A stretch of 64,000 bases of DNA from Schlesneria sp. (lineage in GTDB: Bacteria > Planctomycetota > Planctomycetia > Planctomycetales > Planctomycetaceae): assembly GCA_028291515.1 (NCBI GenBank), contig JAQGHU010000062.1:124001-188000 (forward strand), in the 5' to 3' direction. Below the pieces are notes generated by a model that worked only from the letters and a program-made list of their open reading frames with translations, had not been told where the DNA came from and ran no database searches. Positions 15,080 to 50,192 of this stretch are shown piece by piece; position 1 is the stretch's first letter; every line of letters begins with the position of its first letter. Position numbers and translations under genes: made by a program.

Positions 15080-15300
15080 CGAAGGCCCCGCGAATGAATG
15101 AGATCGGTCAATCCTGCGAGGCACAATCTGTTGCCCCGGACATTCATTGTGGTTCTGCGACGACCATGAATCAATCTTCGCCATGATTTAGGGATTCTGA
15201 CAGCCGCTTTTTGGAGGGCGATGCGGCAAAGCTCCTGCCCCGCTCAAAAAAAGATGGCAGGGACTGAAGAGCAAGAACGATGGATGGGATACTCGTCCTA

Positions 15301-16542
15301 CTAAAGACCGCTCGGCGAGATCACGCTGCGACGCCTAGCGGCGATGAAGAGCAGTAGCTCGTGAGCGACGAACAACAACGCCGCCAGGGCCATCGCGAAT
15401 TGAGCGACCACTTCCAGGCCGAGCTTTTCGGCGAACAGGCCGGCCAAGCCGGGGACTAGGGCCGCGCCCAACATCCCCGAGCTGACTTGGAAGCCGACCG
15501 CATGCGTCGCGATTCCGGCTCCTAATCGAACGGGAGTCATCGTCATCAGGCAGGGAAAGATCGGGGCCAGGCCCAGGCCGATGATCACCAGACCCGCCGA
15601 ACCGACTTCCACCGGCTTGCCGAACGCGAACAGCAGCACTCCGACCAGCACGATCAACATCGCCACTCGCAGCAGTCGATCCAGGCCGACTCGGGATGCG
15701 ATCAGGCCAGAGAGGACTCGTCCGACACCAATCGCGCCGTAATAGCTGCTGGCCAGCGTGCCGGCGATGTCGGGCCGTACCCCGCGCGATTCCGTCAGCA
15801 CGGTGAAGCTCCATTGACCGACGGTGAACTCAAGTCCCACGTACAGAAAGAAGATCACGATCTGTAGCCAGACCATCGGCTCTTGCAAGGCGGTCTTCAT
15901 CGAGACGGGTTGATCAGCGGGCCCCTCTGCGGCTCGCGGCGAATCGTTCCAGCGTTCGCGAGTGACGAAGAACAGCACCGCCATCGCCAGCAGGATGCCA
16001 CCGACCAGTTCATAGCCCAGTCGCCACGATCCTCCTCGTACCAGCACGGCGGTCATCAGCAGCGGGCCCAGCGTCGCACCCACGCTGTAACAGGCATGCA
16101 ACCAGTTCATGTGGCGAGCCGAGAAATGAGTTGAAACATAAGCGTTCAACCCGGCATCAATCCCGCCGGAGCCAAGTCCCCAGATCACGCCGCACGCGAC
16201 GAAGAACGGCCACGCTGGAGCAACGCCGCTTCCCAGCATCGCCATCGCGACCAGACCACTGCTGATCCACAGCAGATTGCCCAGCCCCAGGACCGTGGTC
16301 AGCTTGCCACCAAAGAACCCCGACGCGCAGTACCCACAACCCAGAGCGATAAAGACCAGCCCGAAGCCACTTTGATGCAGCGAAAACGCCTGCCGCACCG
16401 AAGGCCACGCCACTCCCGCGACAGGGTCCGGAAACCCCAAGCTGATAAAGCCCAGGTACGCAATCGCCAGCAGCAATCCTTGGCTCAACGCACGAGTGCC
16501 AGTTGAAGTGGATGTCGTCCCGGTCGCAGAATTCTCGTCCAT
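15301..16542 (-). CDS. Major facilitator superfamily transporter
   Basis: The 413 residues form about twelve hydrophobic segments. The first helix pair has GFISLGFPDPVAGVAWPSVR, resembling the sugar-type MFS subgroup (FucP/GlcP-like) in which the DP motif lies in TM1; a second half begins near EPMVWLQIVIFFLYVGLEF. No substrate can be named. The ATG at 16542 lies just after a divergent promoter region shared with the lipoprotein gene on the plus strand. Confidence 0.88.
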   Translation of the reverse strand: MDENSATGTTSTSTGTRALSQGLLLAIAYLGFISLGFPDPVAGVAWPSVRQAFSLHQSGFGLVFIALGCGYCASGFFGGKLTTVLGLGNLLWISSGLVAMAMLGSGVAPAWPFFVACGVIWGLGSGGIDAGLNAYVSTHFSARHMNWLHACYSVGATLGPLLMTAVLVRGGSWRLGYELVGGILLAMAVLFFVTRERWNDSPRAAEGPADQPVSMKTALQEPMVWLQIVIFFLYVGLEFTVGQWSFTVLTESRGVRPDIAGTLASSYYGAIGVGRVLSGLIASRVGLDRLLRVAMLIVLVGVLLFAFGKPVEVGSAGLVIIGLGLAPIFPCLMTMTPVRLGAGIATHAVGFQVSSGMLGAALVPGLAGLFAEKLGLEVVAQFAMALAALLFVAHELLLFIAARRRSVISPSGL

Positions 16543-16723
16543 TCGTATCAGCCATCCCTGGTAAAAGGCGTGTGTGCAAGAAGCGGTTGATTATGGACAA
16601 AGCAAAGTGCAATCAACATGCCGCGGAGAGAATGTATCAAAGAGTACGAAGGAGATTGGGATTGATCCCAAATGGACCCTGCGGATACACCCGAGTTTGT
16701 TCGTTTCCGCAGAGGGCAATCAC

Positions 16724-18063: not shown

Positions 18064-18270
18064 ATGACCACCGATCAACTGATCCGCAACATCTTAGAAC
18101 GCGCCATCAGTGATGGGCTCGTGCTCCCGGCCACGAACCGCTTCGCTGACCCCGACCCGCAGCGACGAACTTATGAGGAGCTGAAAGAGTTGGCACAGAT
18201 GGTCGTGCGATGGCAAAAGGGCCGAATGGTGGCTTTCAACGCAGATCAGAGTGATATCCGTTATGACTGA
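18064..18270 (+). CDS. Small hypothetical protein, 68 aa
   Basis: The polar, helical product (MTTDQLIRNILERAIS ... EELKELAQMVVRWQKGR) is not recognised. Its ATG lies behind GGAACC; an upstream GTG at 18025 is possible. The 3' end overlaps the end of the convergent GWRRK-family gene by ten bases. Codon use looks normal, but the call rests only on an open frame and amphipathic composition. Confidence 0.45.
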   Translation: MTTDQLIRNILERAISDGLVLPATNRFADPDPQRRTYEELKELAQMVVRWQKGRMVAFNADQSDIRYD

Positions 18271-18758
18271 ACGACGCGCTTCCGTGATGGGACCAGGATC
18301 AGATAGGCGGAAAGCAGCGCGAGAGGCAGCACGACAAACCAGTAGGGGATCAAACAGATCCAGAACTTGGAGCCAACGACATCTCCTGTTCCGAATTGAA
18401 AGCCAAGTCCTTTCAGCCTCCACTCCCAGTCAATCCCTATTCCTCCATAGACTGGCATCAGGGTTTCGTCGTCGGTCAGGTATCTGCTCTTCATCGAGAA
18501 TGAATACCGCGGCGGGACCGGGTGCAGAAAACCGAGGCTGCTGAAATCGCCCATGGGTGGCGGCGGGGGGGAGATGGTTCGAAGCCACTTCAATTCCCCC
18601 TGAAACGAGGCAATAAAGTCGCACGTCGTCGTGCCTCGGTTGACCGTCACGGAATCGCCATATATCAGACTGCGCCCCCACAAGATCGCCAACGCGCACG
18701 CCATGGCCAGCGTGACGACGCCAACCTTCCGCCTCCAGCCTCGAAAGAACTCACGCAT
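18261..18758 (-). CDS. GWRRK-family two-TM protein, copy 1
   Basis: This is the reference entry for a small family repeated across 18-28 kb. Architecture: conserved start MREFFRGWRRKVG, TM1 (VVTLAMACALAILW), WGRSL, then a divergent 90-100-residue domain, a conserved WxWRLKGLGFQFGTG block, and TM2 with IPYWFVVLPLALLSAYLIL followed by a basic tail SRKR. Positive ends predict both termini inside and the variable part outside the membrane. Function unknown; I know of no named family. The ectodomain of this copy (GDSVTVNRGT...) is very close to copy 21509. The start overlaps the upstream gene's stop by eight bases. Confidence 0.82.
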   Translation of the reverse strand: MREFFRGWRRKVGVVTLAMACALAILWGRSLIYGDSVTVNRGTTTCDFIASFQGELKWLRTISPPPPPMGDFSSLGFLHPVPPRYSFSMKSRYLTDDETLMPVYGGIGIDWEWRLKGLGFQFGTGDVVGSKFWICLIPYWFVVLPLALLSAYLILVPSRKRVVQS

Positions 18759-19200
18759 GGGTCTGGCTCGTGGTTGTTGGTTGCTTTCGAGATGGGACCA
18801 GGATCAGGTAGGCGGATAGCATGGTTAGAGGAACTGTACAGAACCAATGCGGTATGACGTAGCACGTTGTCTCTGAGATGCCGTCAATCCAAGTGCGTTT
18901 TCCAGAGGCGAAACCGAAAAGTCGCGACGACTCGTTGAACCCGTGCATCAAATAGTTGATGTCATCCACGGAATACGAATACCACAGATACTTCGGAGGA
19001 AATTGTTCCTGAAACCGTGATTGCTCCCAGCGATAACCTTCGGGCGTCACCAAAACCCAAGTGGATGCATGTTCGCCTTGAATCAGGCCGAAGTGGTCGA
19101 CGATGCGAAGGGATCGTAGCCACATGCCCGTGACCAAACACGCCACCGTCAGCGTGACGCACCCAGCCTTCCGCCTCCAGCCTCGAAAGAAGTCACGCAT
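18751..19200 (-). CDS. GWRRK-family two-TM protein, copy 2
   Basis: Start MRDFFRGWRRKAG, TM1 CVTLTVACLVTGMW, then an ectodomain unlike the other copies (EGYRWEQSRFQEQFPPKY), and TM2 VIPHWFCTVPLTMLSAYLIL with the tail ending in SQTHA. The terminal codons form ATGCGTGA with the start of copy 1. The pre-TM2 W-x-W block is reduced. 149 residues. Confidence 0.8.
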   Translation of the reverse strand: MRDFFRGWRRKAGCVTLTVACLVTGMWLRSLRIVDHFGLIQGEHASTWVLVTPEGYRWEQSRFQEQFPPKYLWYSYSVDDINYLMHGFNESSRLFGFASGKRTWIDGISETTCYVIPHWFCTVPLTMLSAYLILVPSRKQPTTTSQTHA

Positions 19201-19666
19201 GGGGTTGGCTCGCGGTTGGTGGTCGCGTGCGTGACGGGACCAGGATCAGATAGGCCGACAGCAGTGCCAGAGGCGGAACGATCGACCAATACGGAAAGAC
19301 GCAGAAGGCGGTCTGGAGGTTGGAGCGGGGATATTGCCCGGCACCCGCGTGAAAGTCATAAAAGTCCCATCTCCAGTCGACATCAATCCCGTACCAGGGA
19401 TCACGGCTCTGACCAGGCTGATACGGCAAAAGCTCTTCCAGCTTGCCTGTGTCCCAACTCACGAGTTGCGGTGAATTCGTCGGGCCCTGCGTGATGAACC
19501 TCAGTTGGCCGCCGTGAGTTCCCAGGCGGTAGGTCATGCCTTGGATGTTCAAGTCAAAGAAGTCGTACTGAAACCCTCCACGCAGCCATGCCGCCATCAG
19601 GACGCACGCCGTCACCAGGAAGACGCATCCCGCCTTTCGTCGCCAGCCGTGGAAGAAAGTGTGCAT
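19193..19666 (-). CDS. GWRRK-family two-TM protein, copy 3
   Basis: Start MHTFFHGWRRKAG, TM1 CVFLVTACVLMAAW, ectodomain with GTHGGQLRFITQG and an IDVDWRWDFYDFHAGAG block, TM2 FPYWSIVPPLALLSAYLIL. The C-terminus SQPHA stop overlaps the start of copy 2 by eight bases. It appears to be the first gene of a three-gene minus-strand chain (19666 to 18261). No strong SD precedes the ATG (CCCCCTATG). Confidence 0.8.
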   Translation of the reverse strand: MHTFFHGWRRKAGCVFLVTACVLMAAWLRGGFQYDFFDLNIQGMTYRLGTHGGQLRFITQGPTNSPQLVSWDTGKLEELLPYQPGQSRDPWYGIDVDWRWDFYDFHAGAGQYPRSNLQTAFCVFPYWSIVPPLALLSAYLILVPSRTRPPTASQPHA

Positions 19667-19799
19667 AGGGGGAATGCCTTAAACGGTCAAATCGCCATAT
19701 CATCGGGCGGGGGCGAGTGCCTGTCAAAGAGACCGTCTCGCGGGGAGCGGGTCAGTTCGAATCAGTATTTGAATTCGCGGGTTTCTGCTTTCGCCGCGG

Positions 19800-20145
19800 C
19801 TAAAGAATCATAGCGATCGCGGTGATGGCAAAAGGCGTGGAGATTGTGGAACAGGAGGTACGCCACTTCTCGAAGCTGATATGTGGCTCATCGTACAGAC
19901 CATCCCAAGCTGCTGGCGAGAACCTCCAGAAGTCCGGCGTCACTGGAGTAGCAGACCAGCCCCAAAACAGCCCCGAATCCCGATTCCATCCGCCCCATTC
20001 GATAACGCCGTCGGACATCATAATCTCATGCTGTCGATTGCCGATTGAGAACTGAATGTCGTCCATCACAACGCGGCTTCTGAGCCGCCACCACGAGCGC
20101 AACAGATCCCACCTTTCGTCGCCAGCCGCGGAAGAAGTCACGCAT
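19800..20145 (-). pseudogene. Broken GWRRK-family copy
   Basis: The frame from the ATG at 20145 reads MRDFFRGWRRKVGSVALVVA and then stops after 40 codons. The expected continuation (RLRSRVVMDDIQFSIGN, an ectodomain, then a hydrophobic FAITAIAMIL end) is found in another frame, so a small deletion inside TM1 shifted the frame. The canonical TM2/KPRKR end is not recognisable. The start is overlapped by the upstream gene's stop in the usual ATGCGTGA junction, showing that this was once a coupled gene. Confidence 0.7.
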
Positions 20146-20890
20146 CGCCGCTTACCCGCTTCCGTGGCTTCCAGAGAATCAGGTAGGCGGAGAGCAAGCC
20201 GAGGGGGCCTGCGATCAACCAATGGGGCATGGCTGGTCCGGGGTGTCTCCATCGCATCGGATAGGTCTCAATCACTTTTCCGTTCACGTCCATGTACGTG
20301 ATCACGTCGGTCAATCTGCCAGTGGACAGGTCGAATGCGAAAGGCCCCGTATTGCCACCAATCGAGATTTCACCGCACTGAGACACGGCGCTCACATAGC
20401 CGAACGCCAACAGATCGCAGTAAAACTGGCTACGCACCCACATCACCATCAACACACACGCCAGCGCCAGCATGACAATCCCCGCCTTTCGTCGCCGGCT
20501 GTGAAAGAAGGTGTCGCTGGCGAGTTGGTGACCCGTAGTGTGGCATTCATCGTCGAATCGCCATCGCAAGATCGACAGCCGCTGAAAATGATCCAGCACG
20601 TGAAGCAGAATGTCGATCGAGCACTCTGGATCGGCCACATAAAACTGCGAGAGTCCTGCGTGATCGTTTGTATCGATCAGAAACGAATGCCCCTGATAGT
20701 GAAATGTCAGACTCCAGATCAGCCACGAATCGGTCTGCCCATCACTGATGACAAGCTCATCAAGTTTCAGGGCATGGGATCTGGCTTGCTTCAGGTTCGG
20801 CAACGCCATCGCCTCAAAGAAATGGCGCGAACCAGGGCCAAGTGAAGACTCCTGGATTGAGCATTCCACTTCATCGACCGCGATCGGCAT
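20138..20890 (-). CDS. GWRRK-family protein fused to an unknown N-terminal domain
   Basis: Residues from about 126 onward form a family member: DTFFHSRRRKAGIV, TM1 LALACVLMVMW, a short ectodomain (GGNTGPFAFDLSTGRL) and MPHWLIAGPLGLLSAYLILWKPRKR. In front lies an unrelated soluble domain of about 120 residues (FHYQGHSFLIDTND, SIDILLHVLDHFQRL). The normal MHTFFHGW start has become SDTFFHSR, so the preceding gene appears to have lost its stop and fused. The C-terminus runs into the ATGCGTGA junction with the broken copy. ATG 20890 is chosen; TTG 20935 is possible. Confidence 0.65.
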   Translation of the reverse strand: MPIAVDEVECSIQESSLGPGSRHFFEAMALPNLKQARSHALKLDELVISDGQTDSWLIWSLTFHYQGHSFLIDTNDHAGLSQFYVADPECSIDILLHVLDHFQRLSILRWRFDDECHTTGHQLASDTFFHSRRRKAGIVMLALACVLMVMWVRSQFYCDLLAFGYVSAVSQCGEISIGGNTGPFAFDLSTGRLTDVITYMDVNGKVIETYPMRWRHPGPAMPHWLIAGPLGLLSAYLILWKPRKRVSGDA

Positions 20891-20965
20891 CGGCTGTCGT
20901 TTTAAGATCCCAGAACAATCAACTGCTCCCTTCAATCGCAGAGATCATCGACTTGCCAGCTCGGT

Positions 20966-21075
20966 TCACTGGCCACTCTGCCGCTCCTCGACAACGACCC
21001 GCTTCCGTGGCTTCCAGAGTATTAGATATACCGAGATCAAAGTGGGTACTGACCAGCTACTTTGGGGGTGAAGAT
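20966..21075 (-). pseudogene. C-terminal remnant of a GWRRK-family gene
   Basis: The minus strand reads SSWSVPTLISVYLIL-WKPRKRVVVEERQSGQ-stop, the TM2 and basic tail of the family, with no N-terminal part upstream. A decayed relic left between two live copies, consistent with birth-and-death turnover of the array. Confidence 0.65.
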
Positions 21076-21116
21076 TAGCTGTCTGTCGCTCGTTTGCGCG
21101 GCCGGAGGGCGCGATT

Positions 21117-21485
21117 TCAGTACTTCACTTCTTCAAAATACAACGTTCCACCTAGGTACTCGGCCTTCTTGTGGTATTCACGCTCCGGCTCGTCAATGAC
21201 ATATAGCCTCGCATTCTGTCGGCTCGCGTCGGGGAACCCCATTCGTCGGGCAAAGCGGTCGAACTCATCCTGCGTGATATTGTCAGCTTCCAGCTTATAT
21301 GAGAAGTCCGGCAAGAATCCGCTGATGGATTCTACTTCCTTAATGTTGACAGCACGGAAAGGCAGTGCTTGCCTCGCTGACGGGAAGAAAAGGCACCCGC
21401 CGATCGACGGGAGGGCGCAGGTCGCCATGCCGATCACGAAACCGGCGAGCGCTGATTTTTTGTTATTCATCTTTCCTCGTCCCAT
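21117..21485 (-). CDS. Putative lipoprotein
   Basis: From ATG 21485 (or 21470, giving MNNKKSALAGFVIGM) the product has a lipoprotein signal ending SIGGC and a mature part of about 95 residues (ITQDEFDRFARRMGFPD, RLYVIDEPEREYHKK). No family recognised. The upstream 5' region is a partial copy of the three-hairpin repeat, whose CCGACAAT runs straight into the ATG at 21485. GAGGA lies between the two candidate ATGs, rather close to the second. Confidence 0.6.
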   Translation of the reverse strand: MGRGKMNNKKSALAGFVIGMATCALPSIGGCLFFPSARQALPFRAVNIKEVESISGFLPDFSYKLEADNITQDEFDRFARRMGFPDASRQNARLYVIDEPEREYHKKAEYLGGTLYFEEVKY

Positions 21486-21511
21486 ATTGTCGGTCGTCCT
21501 TACCGGGACTA
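21485..21511 (-). repeat. Partial three-hairpin repeat (first hairpin only)
   Basis: On the minus strand AGTCCCGGTAAGGACGACCG and ACAAT match the left end of the repeat described at 17827; hairpin 2 and 3 are absent. Confidence 0.6.
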
Positions 21512-22027
21512 AGGCAACTCCGCAGCCGAGCTTTGTGGTGGTCCTGAATCCCGCTTCCGTGGCTTCCAGAGTATCAGGTACGCAGCGAGCAGCGCGAGAG
21601 GCAGCACGACGGACCAGTAAGGGATCAAACAGGTCCAGAATCGGAAACCGCTGACAGTCCCTGTGCCGTATTGAAAACCAAGGACTTTCTGCCTCCAATC
21701 CCATTCGATCTGTGATCCTCCAAAGATCGGCATCAGCGTTTCGTCCCCGTCAACGTATCTGAAGTCCATTGACAAGACATAGCGAGGTGTCACAGGTGTT
21801 GGGATGCCGTTGAGTAAGCTTGAGCTTGGAGGTGCGGAAGCGGTGGATCGAATCCACTTCAGCTCACCTTGGAAAGAGGCAACAAAGTCGCAAGTCATCG
21901 TGCCTCGATTGACCGTCACGGAATCGCCGTAGACCAGACTGCGTCCCCACATGGTTGCCAACACGCACGCCAGCACGAGCGTTAAGCAGCCAACCTTTCG
22001 TCGCCAACCTCGGAAGAACTCACGCAT
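21509..22027 (-). CDS. GWRRK-family two-TM protein, copy 4 (close paralogue of copy 1)
   Basis: MREFFRGWRRKVG, TM1 CLTLVLACVLATMW, and an ectodomain nearly parallel to copy 1: GDSVTVNRGTMTCDF, ASFQGELKWIRS, DETLMPIFGG, then IEWDWRQKVLGFQYGTG and TM2 IPYWSVVLPLALLAAYLIL with WKPRKR. Insert and tail lengths differ (172 versus 165 residues). The shared ectodomain points to a recent duplication of this type about 3 kb apart. The start overlaps the upstream SQSHA stop by eight bases. Confidence 0.82.
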   Translation of the reverse strand: MREFFRGWRRKVGCLTLVLACVLATMWGRSLVYGDSVTVNRGTMTCDFVASFQGELKWIRSTASAPPSSSLLNGIPTPVTPRYVLSMDFRYVDGDETLMPIFGGSQIEWDWRQKVLGFQYGTGTVSGFRFWTCLIPYWSVVLPLALLAAYLILWKPRKRDSGPPQSSAAELP

Positions 22028-22463
22028 GGGACTGACTCGCGCTGGGAAGTCGCTTTCGTGATGGGACGAGCAGCAGGTAGGCGGAGAGAAGAGTCAGGGG
22101 AACGGCAATTGACCAATAGGGAAACGTGAAGAACTGAAACTTATTCCTTGCATACCCAAAACCGCCCCACTGAAAACTCCACTTCGTGTCCTCGGGAAGC
22201 AGTTCGTCGAGCGGTACAGACTTTTCCGTTTCCCAGATCAATCGCGATGAGTCGAACGTGTTCCAGGCAATTGGGATCTCCGCGATGATGCCGCAAGTGC
22301 CACTCACCGAAACGAACCACATCGGTAAAGCAGGAGCAGAATTCGCCCAGCCGAACGAGTCATATACCAAGAAGCTGCGTATCCACCCTCCACTCACGAC
22401 CAACGCCATGAGCAGCGTGACTATGCCCGCTTTCCGCCGCCAGCCGTGAAAGAAATTGTGCAT
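22020..22463 (-). CDS. GWRRK-family two-TM protein, copy 5
   Basis: MHNFFHGWRRKAG, TM1 IVTLLMALVVSGGW, ectodomain with SVSGTCGIIAEIP and LDELLPEDTK, a WSFQWGGFGYARNKF block and TM2 FPYWSIAVPLTLLSAYLLL. 147 residues. The C-terminus SQSHA overlaps copy 4. An in-frame ATG two codons upstream (22469) is possible; the longer frame enters a foldback repeat at 22478 and was rejected. Confidence 0.8.
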   Translation of the reverse strand: MHNFFHGWRRKAGIVTLLMALVVSGGWIRSFLVYDSFGWANSAPALPMWFVSVSGTCGIIAEIPIAWNTFDSSRLIWETEKSVPLDELLPEDTKWSFQWGGFGYARNKFQFFTFPYWSIAVPLTLLSAYLLLVPSRKRLPSASQSHA

Positions 22464-22477
22464 GGGCATCTCAAATC

Positions 22478-22551
22478 GTAGGGTATGCGGTTTTCGGAAC
22501 ACACCATCATGTCGCATCCGGGGTGCGTTTCGAAGACTGCACGCACCCTAC
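22478..22551. repeat. GTAGGGTG-type foldback repeat, copy 1
   Basis: GTAGGGTATGCGG...TTCGGAACACACC pairs imperfectly with GGTGCGTTTCGAAG...CACCCTAC. It separates divergent GWRRK-family genes (22463 minus, 22579 plus). Similar elements lie at 26274, 27136 and 28301. Confidence 0.7.
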
Positions 22552-22578
22552 ATCTGGAACGTATGATATCATGTCCCC

Positions 22579-22980
22579 ATGCGTACTTTCTTCCACGGTT
22601 GGCGACGAAAAACAGGCGTAGTCACGTTGGTGGTGTCGTGCGCGCTGATGGGATTGTGGATGCGGAGTCAACTGGTCGGCGACACGTGGTGCTGGTCCGT
22701 CGGTCATGAAACCGAAGTCGTGATCTCTGAGGACGGAATGCTGTCCTGGTGGAGATTGGCGACGCAGCGCCCGGTCGCTCGCTTCTGGAACCCCGGATTC
22801 GTCAGTCAATCACCCGACGGTACACGCTATGCGACAATCGGAGACTGGGGCGTGGAGCTTGGTTTGTCCGACTCATTGACAGTCCCTTACTGGCCCTTCG
22901 TGATCCCGCTGACGCTGCTCTCCGGTTACCTGATGCTCTGGAAGCCGCGGAAGGGAGATCCCGGACCGACACCACAATAG
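22579..22980 (+). CDS. GWRRK-family two-TM protein, copy 6
   Basis: MRTFFHGWRRKTG, TM1 VVTLVVSCALMGLW, ectodomain with TEVVISEDGMLSWWRLA and SQSPDGTRYATIGDW, TM2 VPYWPFVIPLTLLSGYLML and WKPRKG. At 133 residues it is the shortest full copy, and the W-x-W pre-TM2 block is replaced by GDWGVELGL. No SD; the 30 bases before the ATG (ACGCACCCTACA ... TATCATG-CCCC) are shared with the copy at 24249. Confidence 0.8.
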   Translation: MRTFFHGWRRKTGVVTLVVSCALMGLWMRSQLVGDTWCWSVGHETEVVISEDGMLSWWRLATQRPVARFWNPGFVSQSPDGTRYATIGDWGVELGLSDSLTVPYWPFVIPLTLLSGYLMLWKPRKGDPGPTPQ

Positions 22981-22982
22981 CT

Positions 22983-23276
22983 TCGTGGGATGGGCTTCCA
23001 GCCCGTCGCTCTGGCTTTCGGTCTGCTTCTCAGTCCCGGTAGGGACGGCCGACAATAGCCCACCACTTTCAGTGGTGGGTGAGTCGACGATCGAGGACCG
23101 CAGTCCCGTGAGGGACGACAGAAGGCTTCGATAACATTTCCCTGACGAGCTCAGAAACTAGGTAGCCTGCATGTCCCGACCAACTTGCACGTCAGGCAAA
23201 TGAACTTCTGTCGTCCCTCCGGGACTGGAAAGAAAAGGCAACAGCCAAGGCGACGGGCTGGAAGCCCATCCCACGA
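22983..23276. mobile_element. MITE-like element with 27-bp terminal inverted repeats
   Basis: The left end (22983-23009, TCGTGGGATGGGCTTCCAGC...) and right end (23250-23276) are perfect inverted repeats of 27 bases. Inside lies a complete three-hairpin repeat (23031-23122) and a reversed single hairpin (about 23205-23228). No transposase frame is present, so mobility would need an enzyme in trans. Target-site duplication was not recognised. Confidence 0.65.
23031..23122 (+). repeat. Three-hairpin dispersed repeat, copy 2
   Basis: GTCCCGGTAGGGAC, GGCCGACAATAG, CCCACCACT/AGTGGTGGG, spacer, GTCCCGTGAGGGAC and GACAGA, in the same order as at 17827. It is nested inside the 294-bp inverted-repeat element. 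Confidence 0.8.
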
Positions 23277-23407
23277 AAGAACAGGGATCGATGTCAGCCG
23301 ACTTGACCAGCAGTCGCTGGCGATTCAATGTGTTGCGGTGTTGTTCGAAAGCTTGTCGTCAATCGCAGACGCGTCCGATTCCACATTAACCGCATCGAGC
23401 ACTCCCT

Positions 23408-23917
23408 GTGAACTCGACCGTCACTCTGTCATTCCGCTACCTGGAGCGCGACTACGTTCGCGCGATGCGTGCCCACTACGCGACGCGGTGTCGTTTGCCG
23501 TGGGACATTGTCGCCGCGGTCGTTCTCGTCAGCATCGGCGCTTACCTCTGCTGGTCACAGGGGCCCGACTGGCTTGGCATTGGGTGTCTTGTCGTGGGAA
23601 TCGCGTTCGCCCTGATGCTGGTTGGCGCATTCATGGTGATCCCGCCGCTGGCCTTCCGTCGGGAGCCGAAGTTCCGCGACGACTATACGGTGACGTTCTC
23701 ACCGGACGGGATTCACTTCCGCACGACGCACATTGATTCGCAGTTGCAGTGGAGTCTGTATTCACGAGCGCTCGTTGATGCTCATTCCTACATGCTCTAC
23801 TACGGCAACCATCAGTTCACCGTGATTCCGAAACGCGTCCTCCAGAATGTCGAGCAGCAACAGGCGTTCGAACTGCTGCTGAGCCAGCATATTGCAAAGA
23901 TCGTCTGGAGACGCTGA
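23408..23917 (+). CDS. YcxB-like membrane protein
   Basis: Start is GTG 23408. Two adjacent TM segments (IVAAVVLVSIGAYLCW and GCLVVGIAFALMLVGAFMVI) are followed by a soluble domain: YTVTFSPDGIHFRT, LQWSLYSRALVDAHSYMLYYG, FTVIPKRVLQN and a C-terminal helix. This order (two TM, beta-rich domain with a pleckstrin-like IPKR strand) is that of YcxB-family proteins, whose function is unknown. It opens a plus-strand run that continues into the zinc-ribbon and GWRRK genes. Confidence 0.75.
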   Translation: MNSTVTLSFRYLERDYVRAMRAHYATRCRLPWDIVAAVVLVSIGAYLCWSQGPDWLGIGCLVVGIAFALMLVGAFMVIPPLAFRREPKFRDDYTVTFSPDGIHFRTTHIDSQLQWSLYSRALVDAHSYMLYYGNHQFTVIPKRVLQNVEQQQAFELLLSQHIAKIVWRR

Positions 23918-23952
23918 AAGGTGGTCCGGTCTTTTTCAAAAAGGAAATTTCA

Positions 23953-24186
23953 ATGAGTGAATCAGCGATGTCTTGTCCGAAGTGCCAAGGTGAGATGGTT
24001 CAGGGATATGTCCTGGATTTCACCCCCATTGGTTTGAGTGTCAGTCAATGGAATGCTGGTTCTCCAAAGAGGGCTGGTTTGAACTCCATCCTGGACTCCA
24101 CTTCACAAATCCCCATCGGCACATTCCGTTGCCGGTCGTGTGGCTTCCTCGAATCGTATGCTCGTGAAGAATTTGCGGCGAAGTGA
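23953..24186 (+). CDS. Zinc-ribbon protein (DUF6487-like)
   Basis: The 77-residue protein has two CxxC knuckles, CPKCQGEMVQG at the start and CRSCGFLESYAREE at the end, separated by a segment with SVSQWNAGSPK and IPIGTFR. This matches small PF20097/DUF6487-type zinc ribbons found next to immunity-like or membrane proteins. A purine-rich AAAGGAAA lies just before the ATG. Function unknown. Confidence 0.75.
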   Translation: MSESAMSCPKCQGEMVQGYVLDFTPIGLSVSQWNAGSPKRAGLNSILDSTSQIPIGTFRCRSCGFLESYAREEFAAK

Positions 24187-24248
24187 TTGGAATGCTGGCG
24201 ACCAGCGACCACGCACCCTACACCTTGACCACTTGGTATCATGCCCCC

Positions 24249-24704
24249 ATGCATGCATTCTTCCACGGTTGGCGACGAAAGTGGGCCTGCGTCACACTGG
24301 TGATGGCAGTCGCGCTGACGGGCATGTGGGTACGAAGCTTGATAGTTCGAGACGAAATCACGTTTCCCAATCCAGGATCCCGGCGTCAACTGGCGTCGGA
24401 TGCGGGAACACTGCGGCTGGGGTATGTGACTTGGGTCAGTCGCCGCAAAAGGGAACAGACATCATTCAGTTTTTTGATCTCGGAACGGCTCTCGGACAAC
24501 GACAATAATGAGTTCTGGACGGGATGCGACATGCAATGGCGGTGGAGCTTCGCAGGATTCGACTTCGGCAAGGGCGTCGACGACCGTATGCTGCCACAGC
24601 AGATTGAGCGATGGGTCATCCCCTATTGGTCCGTCGCGATTCCCTTCACGATGCTTTCGGCGTACCTGTTTCTCGGGAAGCCACGGAAGCGAGTTATGAC
24701 CTGA
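24249..24704 (+). CDS. GWRRK-family two-TM protein, copy 7
   Basis: MHAFFHGWRRKWACV, TM1 LVMAVALTGMW, an ectodomain with RRQLASDAGTLRLGYVTW and SFLISERLSD, the MQWRWSFAGFDFGKG block, TM2 IPYWSVAIPFTMLSAYLFL and GKPRKR. 151 residues. Its TGA overlaps the next ATG by one base. There is no SD; the leader resembles that of the copy at 22579. Confidence 0.82.
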   Translation: MHAFFHGWRRKWACVTLVMAVALTGMWVRSLIVRDEITFPNPGSRRQLASDAGTLRLGYVTWVSRRKREQTSFSFLISERLSDNDNNEFWTGCDMQWRWSFAGFDFGKGVDDRMLPQQIERWVIPYWSVAIPFTMLSAYLFLGKPRKRVMT

Positions 24705-25156
24705 TGCGAGAATTCTTCCACGGTTGGCGACGAAAACTGGGCTGCGTCACGTTGATGCTGGCCTGCCTTGCCACATTGTTCTGGGTCCGGAGCTTTCGCC
24801 ACAACGATGAAATGAACTTCTGGACCGGCACGCTGGCGATTGATTCCTTGAACTCTTCTCCCATGGGCTTGTGCTGGATGAGCCGAGACAAACTCGCTCC
24901 AAACGTGCCGATGCTCTCGGGCCGGTTTGGGTGGGTCGCGACTCAGACATTTGCCAATGACATCTGCGACCCGTTTCGCTGGTCGACGACGAGCTATCAC
25001 TTCCGTTGGTGCGGTTTTCAAGTCGCAGAAGCGACGATCAACCCGCCTGATCGCGGTGAACTGAAGATTTGGATCATCCCGCACTGGGCGCTGGCGCTTC
25101 CCCTGACCCTGCTGTCGGCCGGCCTGATTCTCTGGCAGCCACGGAAGCGAACATGA
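24704..25156 (+). CDS. GWRRK-family two-TM protein, copy 8
   Basis: MREFFHGWRRKLG, TM1 CVTLMLACLATLFW, ectodomain with TLAIDSLNSSPMGLCW, a YHFRWCGFQVAEATI block, TM2 IIPHWALALPLTLLSAGLIL and WQPRKRT. Coupled on both sides: TGATG with copy 7 and ATGA with the LRR gene downstream. 150 residues. Confidence 0.82.
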   Translation: MREFFHGWRRKLGCVTLMLACLATLFWVRSFRHNDEMNFWTGTLAIDSLNSSPMGLCWMSRDKLAPNVPMLSGRFGWVATQTFANDICDPFRWSTTSYHFRWCGFQVAEATINPPDRGELKIWIIPHWALALPLTLLSAGLILWQPRKRT

Positions 25157-26271
25157 TTCGATGTCTCAGGAAGTACGGTCTGCGGATGGTCATTGGCGCG
25201 GTCCTGCTGATCATCGCGTTCGGATCGATCAGCATCTTTACCGGTTATCAGCAGTACCAGCGCGAACTGCGGATCGCGACAAAGTTTTGGTCTACGTCCG
25301 GAAGCGTCAGCTTTCAATACATCGGGCCGAAAGGGATTTCGAAATCATTGCAGGGCAGGTTTCTTTTCTGGCATCGAATCTGTCGCGCCGCCTTCCGCTC
25401 GCGCAATAACTCGACCGAACAGCTCATTGAGTCATTAAAAGAGTTGCCGTACCTCGAAGAACTCTCGTTCGATTCCATGGAAATAACCGACGCCGATCTG
25501 GAGCGACTGCGGGATTTAACTGAGCTGAAAAGCCTCTGGCTGTACCACACGTCGATCAGCGACGCGGGACTGGAACATCTCGGTCGGCTCAAGAAACTCC
25601 AGTCGCTGCATATCTTCGGTTCGGACATCTATGGTAGTGGGCTGACGTTTCTCGGTGAACTGACGAATTTGGAGGAGCTCAATTTGAGTCAAACTCGCGT
25701 CGGGTCGGACGGCCTGCAGCACATCAGCAAACTGGCCAAGCTGCGAGTGCTCCGTATTGACCACACGCGAGTCGACGACGCCGGGATGGTTCACGTGCGA
25801 GGCTTGACAAACCTGGAGACCCTCGACGTGAATCGCAAACTTACTACAGACACCGGCCTTGAATCACTGCAAGGGCTAAGCCGCCTGGTCGCCCTCAATC
25901 TCGACAACACCCAAGTCACCGACATCGGCTTGAGCCATTTGAAAGGGCTGACGAGTCTGACCCGGCTCAGTCTCTCGAATACCTCAGTCACGAATGCCGG
26001 TCTGGAGCATCTTCAACGGATGACGAATTTGACTGACCTCAATCTGAAGCGAACACAGGTCACCGGTGTCGGCTTAATCCATCTGCAACAGATGAGGCAC
26101 CTCCAACAACTGGACCTCGAAGATTGTCGAGTCGCAGACGACGGACTGGACAACCTGAAAGGATTAACGAGCCTCAAATGGCTTGATCTGTTTCGTACCG
26201 ACACCACCCCCGCAGGCCACGACAGACTGCGGACTGAATTACCAGGCTGCCGAATCGAACCCAATCCTTGA
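25153..26271 (+). CDS. Membrane-anchored leucine-rich-repeat protein
   Basis: ATG 25153 overlaps the preceding stop (ATGA). One N-terminal TM (VIGAVLLIIAFGSISIF) anchors the protein, followed by about ten LRRs of 24 residues from residue 90 on, with the pattern LTSLTRLSLSNTSVTNAGLEHL (shown in part), the T-x-V-T-D-x-G-L type common in planctomycetes. LRRs form a curved protein-binding surface, here probably outside the membrane. Being translationally coupled to two GWRRK-family genes, it may bind their ectodomains or the same partner; that is inference. Confidence 0.88.
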   Translation: MIRCLRKYGLRMVIGAVLLIIAFGSISIFTGYQQYQRELRIATKFWSTSGSVSFQYIGPKGISKSLQGRFLFWHRICRAAFRSRNNSTEQLIESLKELPYLEELSFDSMEITDADLERLRDLTELKSLWLYHTSISDAGLEHLGRLKKLQSLHIFGSDIYGSGLTFLGELTNLEELNLSQTRVGSDGLQHISKLAKLRVLRIDHTRVDDAGMVHVRGLTNLETLDVNRKLTTDTGLESLQGLSRLVALNLDNTQVTDIGLSHLKGLTSLTRLSLSNTSVTNAGLEHLQRMTNLTDLNLKRTQVTGVGLIHLQQMRHLQQLDLEDCRVADDGLDNLKGLTSLKWLDLFRTDTTPAGHDRLRTELPGCRIEPNP

Positions 26272-26273
26272 TC

Positions 26274-26312
26274 GGTAGGGTGTGTGCAGTCGTCGGAACA
26301 CATCATCACTCG
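26274..26312. repeat. GTAGGGTG-type repeat, left half
   Basis: GTAGGGTGTGTGCAGT...CGGAACACA matches the left arm of the foldback repeats at 22478, 27136 and 28301; the right arm is missing. Confidence 0.6.
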
Positions 26313-26335
26313 TCCACGCAGCCAGTTCGCCGCAA

Positions 26336-27088
26336 TCACTCCTTGACGAATGCTATTGGGGCCGCGTTCAGCCTTCGACTCAGTTGCCACAGCGATCCCG
26401 CCTGGATCAGAACCGTGACTGACAAGGCAAACTTGACGAACGAGACTAGGCTGTTCGCGACGGACTCCGAAATAAGCAGCCATCGCGCCGCCTGTTTCAA
26501 CAGAAGCAGTAAGACCAATAGCACGATGATCGCGTGCAGGTTCTGTCTGATTCTTTTGGAGATGCCGGGACTTCCCGTCTTGCGAGCGATCTTAAAGCCC
26601 GCCACCAGATGCCCCAGAAAGATGACGATTGCTGCCACCGCGGCGAGAAACACCATTCCCTCAGTTTGAATTCCTGCACAGAGAAGCGGGATGAGCAGTA
26701 TCGACCCCACAGCAACGTATCGAGCCACAGTTTCTAAAGGAGTGAATGGCTGTTGCGTGATCTTCCAGGTTCCCACGATCAGCAGGCCGTAACCGAGAAT
26801 CGCAATCACCGCTCCACAGAACGTCACGATACGAAGAGTCTGCATTTCCCGGTACTGAGCTTCCAACTGCTCCGTTGCGATTCGAAGATGCTCCACATCA
26901 CGATTCTTGATCGCCGCGTCGCTCTGGCGATTGATATCGGCGACCTGCACATCGACCGCGGCAACGGAACTCTTCACATACTGCACGAAGACAGAAGCGA
27001 GCGTCGACCCGACGTAGAAGATCACCAGATATTGCAACCCGACCTGCCACGCGATCGGCCAGCGTCGGTCATCAGATTGAGCGTTCAA
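26336..27088 (-). CDS. Multi-pass membrane protein of unknown function
   Basis: TTG 27088 is preceded by GGAGG six bases upstream, the best SD nearby. The 250 residues have an N-terminal TM (YLVIFYVGSTLASVFVQYV), a helical polar segment (NRDVEHLRIATEQLEAQYREM) that may form a coiled coil, then about six further hydrophobic segments including FLAAVAAIVIFLGHLVAGF and AIIVLLVLLLLLKQA. No family recognised. It is transcribed against the LRR gene. Confidence 0.6.
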   Translation of the reverse strand: MNAQSDDRRWPIAWQVGLQYLVIFYVGSTLASVFVQYVKSSVAAVDVQVADINRQSDAAIKNRDVEHLRIATEQLEAQYREMQTLRIVTFCGAVIAILGYGLLIVGTWKITQQPFTPLETVARYVAVGSILLIPLLCAGIQTEGMVFLAAVAAIVIFLGHLVAGFKIARKTGSPGISKRIRQNLHAIIVLLVLLLLLKQAARWLLISESVANSLVSFVKFALSVTVLIQAGSLWQLSRRLNAAPIAFVKE

Positions 27089-27135
27089 ACATCGCCTCCG
27101 CCGTGATCGGATCTTACTGTCGAGATCAAGTCTTG

Positions 27136-27217
27136 TCGGGTGTGTGCAGTCTTCGGAACACACCACGAACGCAACGTGAAGATCCGATGGTGTGTTGCGA
27201 AGACTCCACAGACCCTA
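27136..27217. repeat. GTAGGGTG-type foldback repeat, copy 2
   Basis: CGGGTGTGTGCAGTCTTCGG...ACACACC faces GGTGTGTTGCGAAGACTCC...ACCCTA. The arms, about 30 bases each, pair imperfectly. Confidence 0.7.
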
Positions 27218-27286
27218 AATTGTGACTATACTAGCCGCCTCACTGAACGCGCGACCATTCGAGATATTTTGTTCGGAGTACCCGTC

Positions 27287-27439
27287 ATGAGACACGTTGT
27301 CGGCTGGTTGTTCTTGATCGTCGGGACCTTCGCGGCCTTCGCGGAACCGCACAGCGGAACTGGTTGCATCGCCATCGCCGGTGCGATCCTGCTCGCCGCC
27401 GAACGAATCGCTGTCTCACTGTCTCAACGCATCCCGAGT
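27287..27439 (+). CDS. Small membrane protein, 51 aa
   Basis: CGGAG lies eight bases before the ATG. The product (MRHVVGWLFLIVGTFAAFAE ... GCIAIAGAILLAAERIAV) has two short hydrophobic segments. No family known. It precedes GWRRK copy 9 by about ten bases and may be co-transcribed with it. Confidence 0.5.
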
Positions 27440-27451
27440 TAAAGAGGCCCC

Positions 27452-27955
27452 ATGCACACAGTCTTCCACGGTTGGCGACGAAAGCTGGGTTGCGTCACGC
27501 TGCTGATGGCACTCGCGCTAACAGGTCTGTGGATTCGGAGTCGTTCCACCTTGGATGAGTACCACCTCTGGAAGCAGCAGCAAACATCAGTGATCGTCGC
27601 CTCAGAGAAAGCTTGCCTGGTCTTAGGGAGATTGTGGAACGCGAGCCCCAGCGTCATCCTCGGCCCTTACATTGAAATGGATCGCGAGCGAATCATCTCG
27701 GGCGGACGGATTGTGCATGCGGCGGATCTCGACATCGAGTCGCGCTGGCAAGGCGGTGGCATCGAACTGGTAAAGCGATATCAGCAACCGCCACTCAGCT
27801 TGAAGAACATCAAGCTGGATTTGTTCATCATCCCATACTGGTGCGTCGTCTGGCCCCTGACTTTGCTCTCGGCCTGGCTACTGCTATCCAAGCCGCGAAC
27901 CAGAGCACCAGCCAAGATCGGAGACAGACTGTTTCAGGAGCATGATCACTCATGA
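27452..27955 (+). CDS. GWRRK-family two-TM protein, copy 9
   Basis: AAAGAGG lies before the ATG, a better SD than in other copies. MHTVFHGWRRKLG, TM1 CVTLLMALALTGLW, an ectodomain with TSVIVASEKACLVLGRLW and RERIISGGRI, LDIESRWQGGGIEL before TM2 IIPYWCVVWPLTLLSAWLLL, and a longer tail (SKPRTRAPAKIGDRL). 167 residues. Its TGA overlaps the next gene's ATG (ATGA). Confidence 0.82.
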   Translation: MHTVFHGWRRKLGCVTLLMALALTGLWIRSRSTLDEYHLWKQQQTSVIVASEKACLVLGRLWNASPSVILGPYIEMDRERIISGGRIVHAADLDIESRWQGGGIELVKRYQQPPLSLKNIKLDLFIIPYWCVVWPLTLLSAWLLLSKPRTRAPAKIGDRLFQEHDHS

Positions 27956-43330: not shown

Positions 43331-43428
43331 CTTGGGAGGGCGAGGCGGGCGAGGCTCTCGCCGAGCCGCGCACGTCGATGAGCTCACAATAACATGCGCG
43401 GCTCGGCAGGAGCCTCGCCCTCCCAAAG
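43331..43428. repeat. GGGAGGGCGAGGC foldback repeat, copy 2
   Basis: CTTGGGAGGGCGAGGC on the left pairs with GCCTCGCCCTCCCAAAG on the right; the left arm carries an extra nine-base duplication (GGCGGGCGA). It lies directly before the GTG of fibre protein C. Confidence 0.8.
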
Positions 43429-43459
43429 ATGTAGTCCATTTCATTTCAAAGGCAATCTC

Positions 43460-44635
43460 GTGGCGACCAAGAAGCTGGGGAGCGTGAAGAACATCGACAC
43501 CGTGCTGGTGACGAGCGTGAATCTCGCCGCCGATGTCGGAGCGACGATTCTACCGGTGGCCAATGGCGGGACGGGAAACGGATCGTTCACCGACGGCCAA
43601 TTACTGATTGGCAATACTACCGGCAACACGCTGGCCAAGGCGACTCTGACGGGCACCGCGAATCAAGTGATCGTGACGAACGGCGGCGGGTCGATCACTC
43701 TGTCGACGCCGCAAGGTATCGCAACCACCAGCAGCCCGACGTTTGCAGGACTGACGCTGACAGCGGCGCTGTCGATCGCCAACGGCGGCACGGGGCAGAC
43801 CACTGGCTATGCCGCGTTGGACGCTTTGACTCTGAAAGGCTCCGACATTGCCTCGGCCAGTACAACGAACCTGGCGTCGGCCACCGGCTGCTACGTCAAC
43901 ATCACCGGTACCACGACCATCACCGCGCTGGGTACCGCCGCGGCAGGGGTCGAGCGTGCCTGTCAGTTTGCGAGTTCGTTAACACTGACTCACAACGCCA
44001 CATCGCTGATTTTGCCGGGGGCGGCGAACATCACGACGAACGCCGGCGATGTGGCGACGTTCGTGTCGTTGGGATCGGGCAATTGGATCTGCACGGGGTT
44101 GACCCGCAACGTCCAGCCGTGGGGCGGCCAGATGGTTCTGCTGGCGACGGCGACCGCCTCAGCCTCTGCCACAGTCGATTTCGTCTGGGCTGCTGGACAG
44201 GCATATCAAGAGTATCTCGTGATTTTCAGCAACCTGCTTCCGGCAACAACATCTGTCGCATTGCAGGCTCTCACAAGTCCGGACGGCAGTTCATGGGATT
44301 CGGGGGCGAGTAACTATAGCTGGGCCGTGACGCAGTATCTGTCGGGCACCTTTTCAAGTGCCGATGTGAAACTCCAACTGGCAGGGGGTACGGTCGCGTG
44401 GACAACAACTGCGAATCGTGAAGCCAGCGGGGAAGTGAGGATCATTGATCCGGGTGCGTCAAAGAACTGCAAATTGAGCTGGCACATCTCCAGCGCGGCC
44501 GACGGAACGTCACGGCCAGAGGTGGGGGCGGGAGCCCGGTTGTCTGCGGCGGCAGTGCGCGGGATTCGCTTCAAATTCTCCAGTGGCAACATCGCGACTG
44601 GCGACTTTCGTCTGTACGGAATCACGAGGTCTTGA
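43460..44635 (+). CDS. Tail-fibre-like protein C
   Basis: GTG 43460 has AAAGGC upstream and yields VATKKLGSVKNIDTVLVTS, the same N-terminal anchor as protein B. Residues 30-230 are Gly/Thr/Ala-rich shaft repeats (VANGGTGNGS, SIANGGTGQTTGYAALDALTL); residues 235-391 form a C-terminal receptor-type domain (YQEYLVIFSNLLPATTSVAL, VRGIRFKFSSGNIATGDFRLYG) typical of fibre tips. 391 residues. Confidence 0.78.
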   Translation: MATKKLGSVKNIDTVLVTSVNLAADVGATILPVANGGTGNGSFTDGQLLIGNTTGNTLAKATLTGTANQVIVTNGGGSITLSTPQGIATTSSPTFAGLTLTAALSIANGGTGQTTGYAALDALTLKGSDIASASTTNLASATGCYVNITGTTTITALGTAAAGVERACQFASSLTLTHNATSLILPGAANITTNAGDVATFVSLGSGNWICTGLTRNVQPWGGQMVLLATATASASATVDFVWAAGQAYQEYLVIFSNLLPATTSVALQALTSPDGSSWDSGASNYSWAVTQYLSGTFSSADVKLQLAGGTVAWTTTANREASGEVRIIDPGASKNCKLSWHISSAADGTSRPEVGAGARLSAAAVRGIRFKFSSGNIATGDFRLYGITRS

Positions 44636-50051: not shown

Positions 50052-50192
50052 TTACCCTTCCCGAATCAGATCCATGATGTCAGGCCATCGCGTGAACGCT
50101 ACCCATCCGACATAGCCTATGAGAAGACACCACGCCACCACCAGCGTGATTGCTCCCGCCTTTCGTCGCCAGCCGTGGAAGTAGGTGTGCAT
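50052..50192 (-). CDS. Truncated single-TM GWRRK-family protein, 46 aa
   Basis: ATG 50192 begins MHTYFHGWRRKAGAITLVV, the family start, followed by one TM (AWCLLIGYVGWVAF), a short TRWPDIMDLIREG tail and TAA. The ectodomain and TM2 are absent, with no remnant downstream. Either a decayed copy or a deliberate single-TM variant, lying 22 kb from the main array. Confidence 0.6.
   Translation of the reverse strand: MHTYFHGWRRKAGAITLVVAWCLLIGYVGWVAFTRWPDIMDLIREG

What the first reader, a model, noticed from the sequence alone, without database searches (positions are those of the whole stretch)
18261..27955. Expanded family of two-TM proteins with conserved ends and divergent ectodomains
Ten apparently intact copies and two relics in 10 kb (plus one stub at 50 kb) share FFxGWRRKxG-TM1-W-x-RS at the start and (I/F)PYW-PLxLLSAYLxL-KPRKR at the end, while the roughly 100 residues between are mostly unalignable. 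Charge distribution puts the divergent part outside the inner membrane. Conserved ends with rapidly changing centres suggest a diversifying surface or periplasmic recognition system. I know of no named function.
Basis: partly seen in the sequence, partly recalled or inferred. Interest (0 to 1): 0.8.

Follow-up and report, generated by a model that had tools for sequence, protein, structure and literature searches.

The report
Mobile, end-swapping planctomycete membrane-protein family
A planctomycete bacterium carries about ninety copies of a small membrane protein whose outward-facing part appears to be exchanged as a block between copies that share similar DNA at both ends, and some copies sit inside small jumping elements; this suggests how a bacterium can build a large, shuffled repertoire of envelope proteins whose function is still unknown.

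Summary
The family is real: nine copies with a start codon, one without, and relics at 18-28 kb, plus a stub at 50 kb. The own genome gave 89 near-full-length copies (88 clusters with fragments). Eleven of 14 congeners (Schlesneria) have it; outside the genus I saw single matches at most. It is a ribbonless branch of a wider planctomycete two-TM family often ending in a zinc ribbon (HHalign 98%, shuffles at most 8%), named in neither Pfam nor NCBIfam.

Fast ectodomain mutation is not supported: dN/dS is about 0.3 in all regions, and two ectodomains are predicted with the same seven strands. The unusual part is modular. In this genome paralogs share synonymous codons only in codons 2-21 and 133-146; between them sharing is near background. 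At several syntenic loci flanks are about 90% identical while ectodomains share 8-26%. Inverted-repeat ends lie near 29 of 88 clusters; six copies lie between paired ends with 6-8 of 8 matching flanking bases, and one element interrupts a family gene. Best reading: a dispersed repertoire of periplasmic beta-domains, spread by tandem duplication and non-autonomous elements and reshuffled by recombination at the gene ends. Function is inferred only.

The parts
18261..18758 (-). family copy m1 (165 aa); its 5' end overlaps the 3' end of m2 by 8 nt
18751..19200 (-). family copy m2 (149 aa)
19193..19666 (-). family copy m3 (157 aa); ectodomain relative in G011 (0.75 of residues)
   Evidence: (s53/s17)
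20086..20145 (-). relic: 5' tract of a copy (codons 1-20); a family-like ectodomain continues in another frame in ORF 19800-20252
20138..20512 (-). family copy m4; N-module present but without the conserved ATG
20999..21043 (-). relic: C-module only; a TIR-like end begins 1 nt away
21045..21067 (-). TIR-like end (GCTGGTCAGTACC, type B) beside the C-module relic; no partner end found in the window
21509..22027 (-). family copy m5 (172 aa); AlphaFold2 model: TM helix, seven strands, TM helix
22020..22463 (-). family copy m6 (147 aa); overlaps m5 by 8 nt
22579..22980 (+). family copy m7 (133 aa); ortholog in G012 with syntenic flank
   Evidence: (s96/s60)
24249..24704 (+). family copy m8; absent from the syntenic G012 interval
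24704..25156 (+). family copy m9 (150 aa); ortholog in G012, ectodomain 94% identical
   Evidence: (s55/s70)
25153..26271 (+). LRR protein with an N-terminal hydrophobic segment; ATG overlaps the m9 stop (ATGA); absent from the syntenic G012 interval
27452..27955 (+). family copy m10 (167 aa); ortholog in G012; AlphaFold2 model has the same strand order as m5
   Evidence: (s93/s152)
50109..50192 (-). stub: 5' tract of a copy; the syntenic G012 copy is longer and the alignment stops about 62 nt into the gene

Best explanation
Each gene encodes a membrane hairpin: a basic N-terminus in the cytosol, TM1, a small seven-stranded beta-domain on the periplasmic side, TM2 and a basic C-terminus. The genome keeps about 90 such genes and many fragments. 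New loci arise by tandem duplication and, in this genome, also by transposition of small elements without a recognised transposase (terminal inverted repeats GGTACTGACCAGC..., 8-bp target duplications) that carry a copy as cargo. The first ~63 nt and the last ~40 nt of the genes act as homology arms: recombination or gene conversion between copies keeps these tracts alike within a genome and can replace the interior of a copy at a fixed locus, or fuse neighbours in an array. Ectodomains are thus old modules under purifying selection that are re-dealt among loci, not fast-mutating sequences. Shown here: expansion, kinship with zinc-ribbon proteins, terminal codon sharing, different ectodomains behind the same flank at some syntenic loci, inverted-repeat elements with cargo copies. 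Inferred: membrane orientation, that recombination (gene conversion or unequal crossing-over) does the replacing, and that a transposase elsewhere moves the elements. Most likely role, unshown: periplasmic ligand or partner binding by a large repertoire, with immunity or exclusion against neighbours as one possibility.
For: Expansion: searches (152 matches; 89 distinct near-full-length copies from G000), (84 and 88 clusters, fragments included). Codon sharing in G000 (88 copies): (codons 2-21 0.61 against 0.34 background; 133-146 0.61 against 0.31; 22-36 0.33/0.27, 37-120 0.29/0.27, 121-132 0.37/0.30; conserved R29 0.20 against 0.19; within-genome minus between-genome +0.067 and +0.131 in the two end tracts, 0 of 300 permutations); preferred codons at conserved residues differ between genomes (P142, R143, S134, R10, G13); holds with one copy per cluster (51) and at loci without TIR-like ends (69 copies); N-tract excess in all 7 other genomes tested. 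Replacement at fixed loci: 20 pairs whose flank match breaks at the gene; three read base by base; of 13 pairs with a flank match of 300 bp or more, 8 have different and 5 the same ectodomain; s13/s223 matches on both sides at 92% and 93% with ectodomain 0.15. C-end turnover: (s79/s138, synonymous difference 0.74 at C against 0.18, Fisher 9e-6). Elements: 13-mer 21 times in 8.59 Mb, reversed control 0; 19 of 21 within 1 kb of a family segment; target site in L300. Purifying selection. Fold. Zinc-ribbon kin, similar tendency.
Against: The sharp tract boundary is clear in G000, G012 and G011 but blurred elsewhere: in G008 (14 copies) and G005 (12) codons 22-36 and 121-132 are raised as well, and the C tract is weak in G005 and G001. 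Over the whole ectodomain within-genome sharing also exceeds between-genome sharing slightly (+0.006, 13 of 300 permutations), and the permutation ignores shared ancestry. TIR-like ends are near only 29 of 88 clusters (82 held), and in loci of other genomes there were 6 hits in G012 (at least two the same place in two loci), one each in G002, G006 and G013, none in nine others, so they cannot explain the family's spread in the genus. No transposase with these ends was found. Of the 71 flank-linked pairs most rest on 65-150 bp and may be small repeats or array misassignments; only two pairs with different ectodomains (s13/s223, s41/s68) match on both sides. Ortholog-like pairs were chosen by ectodomain similarity, which favours low ectodomain divergence; even so synonymous divergence at N is not significantly higher (Wilcoxon p 0.21), at C it is (p 0.007), by sign test neither (1.0 and 0.33). 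Differential loss from tandem arrays could mimic cassette replacement. Nothing here tests binding, expression or location.
Confidence: 0.6

Rival explanations
1. Birth and death only: tandem duplication followed by differential loss through unequal crossing-over at the similar ends gives different ectodomains at the same place; there is no gene conversion and no shuffling system.
For: Clusters with two or more segments are common (30 of 84; segments, not whole genes); the array 18261-22463 shares only short matches with the copies in the syntenic G012 interval; junctions of overlapping copies are regular.
Against: 54 of 84 clusters hold a single segment, and the ectodomain change at s13/s223 has long matching flanks on both sides. 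Genome-specific end codons beside a saturated interior need exchange among ends.
Confidence: 0.3
2. The end tracts are constrained at DNA or RNA level (translation start, an mRNA element, a transposon subterminal site, a recombinase site) rather than homogenised by recombination.
For: The boundary in G000 is sharp inside a conserved protein run (L132 0.27, L133 0.55); single positions keep one codon in most genomes (R9 CGA); a TIR-like end often lies about 20-30 nt after the gene core.
Against: At several conserved residues the preferred codon differs between genomes (P142, R143, S134), and within-genome exceeds between-genome sharing in the tracts. Loci without TIR-like ends show the pattern too.
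Confidence: 0.2
3. The family is mainly selfish cargo, amplified because it rides on elements, with no selected recognition role.
For: Strong association with inverted-repeat elements in G000, many partial copies (85 of 471 matching ORFs, loci overlapping), and one element inserted into a family gene.
Against: Purifying selection in all regions, an ortholog pair with ectodomains 94% identical, and expansion in congeners where these ends were hardly seen.
Confidence: 0.2
4. A diversifying surface antigen or recognition family driven by positive selection on the ectodomain.
For: Paralogs share only 23% of ectodomain residues against more than 50% at the ends.
Against: Ectodomain dN/dS 0.35 (95% 0.29-0.43), overlapping the N end (0.24-0.39) and the C end (0.22-0.34); same predicted strand order.
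Confidence: 0.08

Closest known systems
Unnamed planctomycete two-TM family with C-terminal zinc ribbon (CxxCGYDLR...CPECG), e.g. L187, L225, L241
   Same: TM1 ending WxRS(Y)...D, SxxGxL, GF, (I/V)P(Y/H)W starting TM2, basic end; multicopy in several genomes; codon sharing at one or other end and background in the few middle positions that could be scored
   Different: Schlesneria copies lack the ribbon and carry FFxGWRRKxG at the start; HHalign 98% over 126 columns, but per-genome sequence searches barely reach from one to the other
Segmental gene conversion systems (Neisseria pilE/pilS, Borrelia vlsE, Anaplasma msp2; recalled, no call)
   Same: variable interior exchanged between flanking conserved DNA
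   Different: here 89 near-full-length genes dispersed over at least 51 clusters instead of one expression locus with silent cassettes; exchange is seen between species, not within a culture
Non-autonomous inverted-repeat elements and mobile insertion cassettes (recalled, no call)
   Same: paired inverted ends, 8-bp flanking duplications, no transposase recognised inside
   Different: the cargo is a large family of membrane-protein genes; no partner element identified
Planctomycete paralog expansions (PMC8567305, passages read)
   Same: paralogization and domain shuffling giving new proteins
   Different: the passages seen name other families (BamB, MutS, RapA, serine/threonine kinases), not this one

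Membership tests
wider planctomycete two-TM family | profile-level homology over TM1-ectodomain-TM2 | tested here: met
   HHalign probability 98.0, E 1.8e-13, score 79.6, 126 columns, 17 ribbon proteins with the ribbon cut off; best of 60 within-segment column shuffles: score 21.95, probability 7.9
wider planctomycete two-TM family | C-terminal zinc ribbon | tested here: not met
   Schlesneria copies end at KPRKR plus a short tail; an exact DNA pattern for CGYDLR(A/G) gave 0 matches in 21 genomes
a Pfam or NCBIfam family | match over the curated cut-off | tested here: not met
   10 window copies and 9 relatives; only sub-threshold matches
gene-conversion diversification systems | conserved flanking tracts with exchanged interior | tested here: met
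   tract boundary blurred in some genomes
gene-conversion diversification systems | exchange within a clonal lineage, with an identified donor | not testable with these tools
   only one genome per species is held
inverted-repeat transposable element | paired inverted ends with flanking target duplication | tested here: met
   8 distinct paired elements: flanking 8-mers agree 8/8 in one, 7/8 in four, 6/8 in two, 5/8 in one; in four of them (C85 40175, C21, C61, C59) the best of two or three possible ends was taken; the C61 right end scores low (13.2) and two elements pair an A-type with a B-type end
inverted-repeat transposable element | transposase acting on these ends | tested here: inconclusive
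   none recognised by eye among ORFs listed for 6 loci with such ends; Pfam on five proteins only, among them a serine recombinase in the C61 element
known fold in the PDB | confident structural match | tested here: inconclusive
secreted-toxin immunity proteins | cognate toxin gene beside the copies | not tested
   recurrent neighbours were sought by BLAST clustering only; no toxin search was done

The most novel reading that the evidence does not exclude
A genome-wide shuffling system: short terminal tracts inside about 90 dispersed genes are recombination arms through which periplasmic beta-domains are re-dealt among loci, small inverted-repeat elements seed new loci, and a similar arrangement recurs in the zinc-ribbon branch across Planctomycetota, giving a repertoire of binding or immunity proteins unlike single-locus antigenic variation.
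Probability: 0.3. Interest if true: 0.9.

Novelty: new variant of a known kind. Interest (0 to 1): 0.72.

Why it matters
It turns a list of uncharacterised paralogs into a testable system: where exchange happens (two tracts inside the gene), what moves (the ectodomain, and whole copies inside inverted-repeat elements) and which wider family it belongs to. If right, part of the paralog wealth of planctomycete genomes comes from recombination at conserved gene ends. A complete-genome comparison of two strains of one species would settle the main claim.

Tried and rejected

Limits of the counts: one search scored 150 of 233 candidates; searches scored at most 65, 23, 13 and 11 candidates per genome, so copy numbers there are lower bounds and absences are at that depth. 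Many of the matches cover only TM2 and the ribbon. My first two criteria for full-length copies left an empty set; one search used a looser C-end limit and the 241 sequences come from it. Copies outside 105-185 residues were dropped in the codon tests. dN/dS used pairs with at least 50% identity and total dS 0.02-1.5 (25 pairs kept). The 17 ortholog-like pairs were picked by hand by ectodomain identity. In one search the list of loci with TIR-like ends was typed and counts the window array as without. The end model was built from sites found, so those sites match by construction; the 13-mer had itself been noticed downstream of family copies, so the P of 1e-28 is not that of a blind test. Assignment of loci L031-L157 to genomes was typed. 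The output was cut; I used its visible parts.
Full report
What is in the window. Nine copies with an intact start and one (20138-20512) that has lost its ATG lie between 18261 and 27955, with an N-only relic (20086-20145), a C-only relic (20999-21043) and a stub at 50109-50192. Neighbouring copies overlap by 8 nt (m1/m2, m2/m3, m5/m6) or 1 nt (m8/m9), and m9 overlaps the start of an LRR gene by ATGA (Pfam). No Pfam family matched the ten copies, and NCBIfam gave only sub-threshold matches.

How far it reaches. The own genome (8.59 Mb, 119 contigs) gives 152 matches at E <= 0.01, 150 of 233 candidates scored. My set holds 89 distinct near-full-length copies from it. By coordinates 141 listed segments, fragments included, fall into 84 clusters on 47 contigs, 54 of them with a single segment, or 88 clusters when weaker rows are added. 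Of 59 genomes in the relatives search, the own genome and 11 of 14 congeners match, and 0 of 44 others at E <= 1e-4; the 41 named loci are from Schlesneria MAGs and one Planctomycetota MAG. With a deeper profile (90 sequences), 27 of 170 family genomes match at E <= 0.1; outside the genus each has one match, two of them strong (2e-19 and 3e-19). Of the weak ones L170, L172, L174 and L177 keep WxRS, S..G or W..G, GF and PYW; L171 is doubtful; L173, L175, L176 and L178-L182 look like chance. A phylum search (6 of 294 genomes at E <= 0.01) and a class search (22 of 347 at E <= 0.02) add a few more distant hits; one of them, L187 (E 8e-4), ends in a zinc ribbon.

Kinship. L187 finds relatives in 56 of 150 genomes of its class, eight of them with 21-22 of at most 22 scored places matching, many only over TM2 and ribbon, some side by side. 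The architecture of the longer ones is TM1-WxRSY...D - S/T..G.L - GF - VP(Y/H)W-TM2 - basic stretch - CxxCGYDLR...CPECG (31 ORFs listed, a few unrelated). After removal of the ribbon, 17 of them align to the Schlesneria profile by HHalign with probability 98.0 over 126 columns, against at most 7.9 in 60 column shuffles that keep segment composition. I had recalled such a family before finding it; the call results, not the recollection, carry the claim. The body of these relatives has no Pfam or NCBIfam name either.

Structure and selection. AlphaFold2 with 90 sequences gives m5 a helix 8-30, seven strands and a helix 138-153 (pLDDT 85.5); m10 with 69 sequences gives the same order (84.3), with the caution that the alignments share most rows. 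No solved structure is a convincing match (viral models). dN/dS over 25 independent pairs is 0.31 (0.24-0.39) for the N end, 0.35 (0.29-0.43) for the ectodomain and 0.27 (0.22-0.34) for the C end.

The ends. For random paralogs of this genome, same-amino-acid codons agree at 0.525 (N) and 0.509 (C) where codon usage predicts 0.335 and 0.303, but at 0.335 against 0.320 in the ectodomain. By column (88 copies) the excess is confined to codons 2-21 (0.61 against 0.34) and 133-146 (0.61 against 0.31). Codons 22-36 (0.33 against 0.27), the ectodomain (0.29 against 0.27) and 121-132 (0.37 against 0.30) are near background, including conserved residues in gap-free columns such as R29 (0.20 against 0.19), so misalignment does not explain the contrast. 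The sequence upstream of the ATG shows little conservation beyond two C's, apart from a GGTATCAT-type motif 14-16 nt before the ATG in 11 of 89 copies. Within-genome agreement exceeds between-genome agreement by 0.067 and 0.131 in the two tracts (0 of 300 permutations each), by 0.006 over the whole ectodomain (13 of 300) and not in codons 22-36, 121-132 or the five conserved ectodomain columns. Preferred codons differ between genomes at conserved residues (P142 CCA, CCG or CCC; R143 CGG, CGC or CGA). The pattern holds with one copy per cluster (51) and at loci without inverted-repeat ends (69 copies). Among seven other genomes the N tract is above background in all; the C tract is weak in G005 and G001; and in G008 and G005, with 14 and 12 copies, the inner stretches are raised too, so the sharp boundary is best seen in G000, G012 and G011. 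In two genomes of the zinc-ribbon branch (15 usable copies each, from 20 and 19 fetched stretches), the few scorable middle positions are at background in both; the start is clearly above it in G814 (0.50 against 0.36) and the end in G808 (0.54 against 0.38), the other ends less so.

Exchange at fixed loci. Flank matches between species that break at a family gene gave 20 copy pairs with ectodomain identity of 0.08-0.26, some with flanks of only about 100 bp. Three were read base by base: upstream identity of 81-86% over 90 nt continues through the first 63 nt of the gene (50, 49 and 57 of 63) and then falls to 9-10 of 21 and 15-22 of 56. Non-syntenic copies share about 0.64 in the first 63 nt anyway, so the first two examples show a modest and the third (s19/s212) a clear excess. 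s13 (G012) and s223 (G000) match on both sides (2234 bp at 91% and 5935 bp at 89%) while their ectodomains share 15%. In a wider scan of 71 flank-linked pairs (9 with the same, 61 with different ectodomains), 13 pairs have a flank match of 300 bp or more: 8 with different and 5 with the same ectodomain. The 18 upstream-linked pairs with different ectodomains had 0.79/0.74/0.74 identity in the first three 21-nt windows against 0.63/0.66/0.64 in 396 non-syntenic pairs, and almost none of that difference beyond 84 nt. In the window, the interval between the MFS gene (15287-16660, 89% to G012) and m7 (22557-23905, 91%) holds different copies in the two species, with short matches only; m7, m9 and m10 have orthologs, m8 and the LRR gene have no counterpart in the syntenic interval. 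One ortholog pair (s79/s138) has a C end at paralog-level synonymous divergence (0.74 against 0.18, Fisher 9e-6); over the 17 pairs, chosen by ectodomain identity, the excess at C is p 0.007 by Wilcoxon but not by sign test (11 of 17, p 0.33), and absent at N (9 of 17).

Mobile elements. The 13-mer GCTGGTCAGTACC, noticed downstream of some copies, occurs 21 times in the genome, its reversed control never; 19 of 21 lie within 1 kb of a family segment, a zone that covers 2.6% of the genome (binomial P 1e-28, not a blind test). It is the outer end of inverted repeats of 28-50 nt, 73-96% complementary, around copies at four loci. A weight-matrix scan of 420 kb of held own-genome sequence found 46 ends (53 against 1 in reversed sequence before merging), 40 within 1 kb of a family segment, near 29 of 88 clusters, 82 of which are held. 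Eight distinct paired elements carry flanking 8-mers that agree 8/8 (one), 7/8 (four), 6/8 (two) and 5/8 (one), the best of several ends being taken in four; six hold a family copy, one is 411 bp without a copy, and one (2236 bp) interrupts a family gene: taking it out with one 8-mer gives an uninterrupted family protein, and pieces of a decayed family copy lie inside it. In the window one such end (21045) lies 1 nt from the C-module relic. In the fetched loci of other genomes the ends are rare (6 hits in G012, at least two of them one place; one each in G002, G006 and G013; none in G001, G003, G004, G005, G007, G008, G011, G808 and G814), so they account for part of the spread in this genome only.

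Reading. Whether exchange is gene conversion, unequal crossing-over in arrays, or both cannot be decided with one genome per species. Function remains inferred from topology and repertoire size.

Noticed in passing
L111:2453-4237 (own genome C61): Serine recombinase (Resolvase from profile position 36 on, Recombinase and zinc ribbon domains), lying between two divergently oriented family copies and inside a paired-repeat element.
   Followed up: partly
L300:3592-5827 (own genome C67): 2.2-kb inverted-repeat element inserted in a family gene; carries a tRNA_anti-like lipoprotein-type gene and pieces of a decayed family copy.
   Followed up: yes
window 25153-26271; L131, L099, L067: LRR proteins directly adjoining or interleaved with family copies on the same strand at several loci; weak enrichment.
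   Followed up: partly
upstream of 11 of 89 own-genome copies: TTTGGTATCATGCC-type motif about 15 nt before the ATG, possibly a -10 element of a leaderless transcript.
   Followed up: no
L293:2614-3024 (own genome C32): 411-bp element with the same kind of inverted ends and no family copy, like a miniature element.
   Followed up: no
window 43382-44632: One of three mutually similar ORFs with GGTGNGSFTDGQLLIGN-type stretches, reminiscent of phage tail-fibre proteins (recalled likeness).
   Followed up: no
window 23408-23917: YcxB-like protein gene inside the array, within the stretch syntenic in G012.
   Followed up: no
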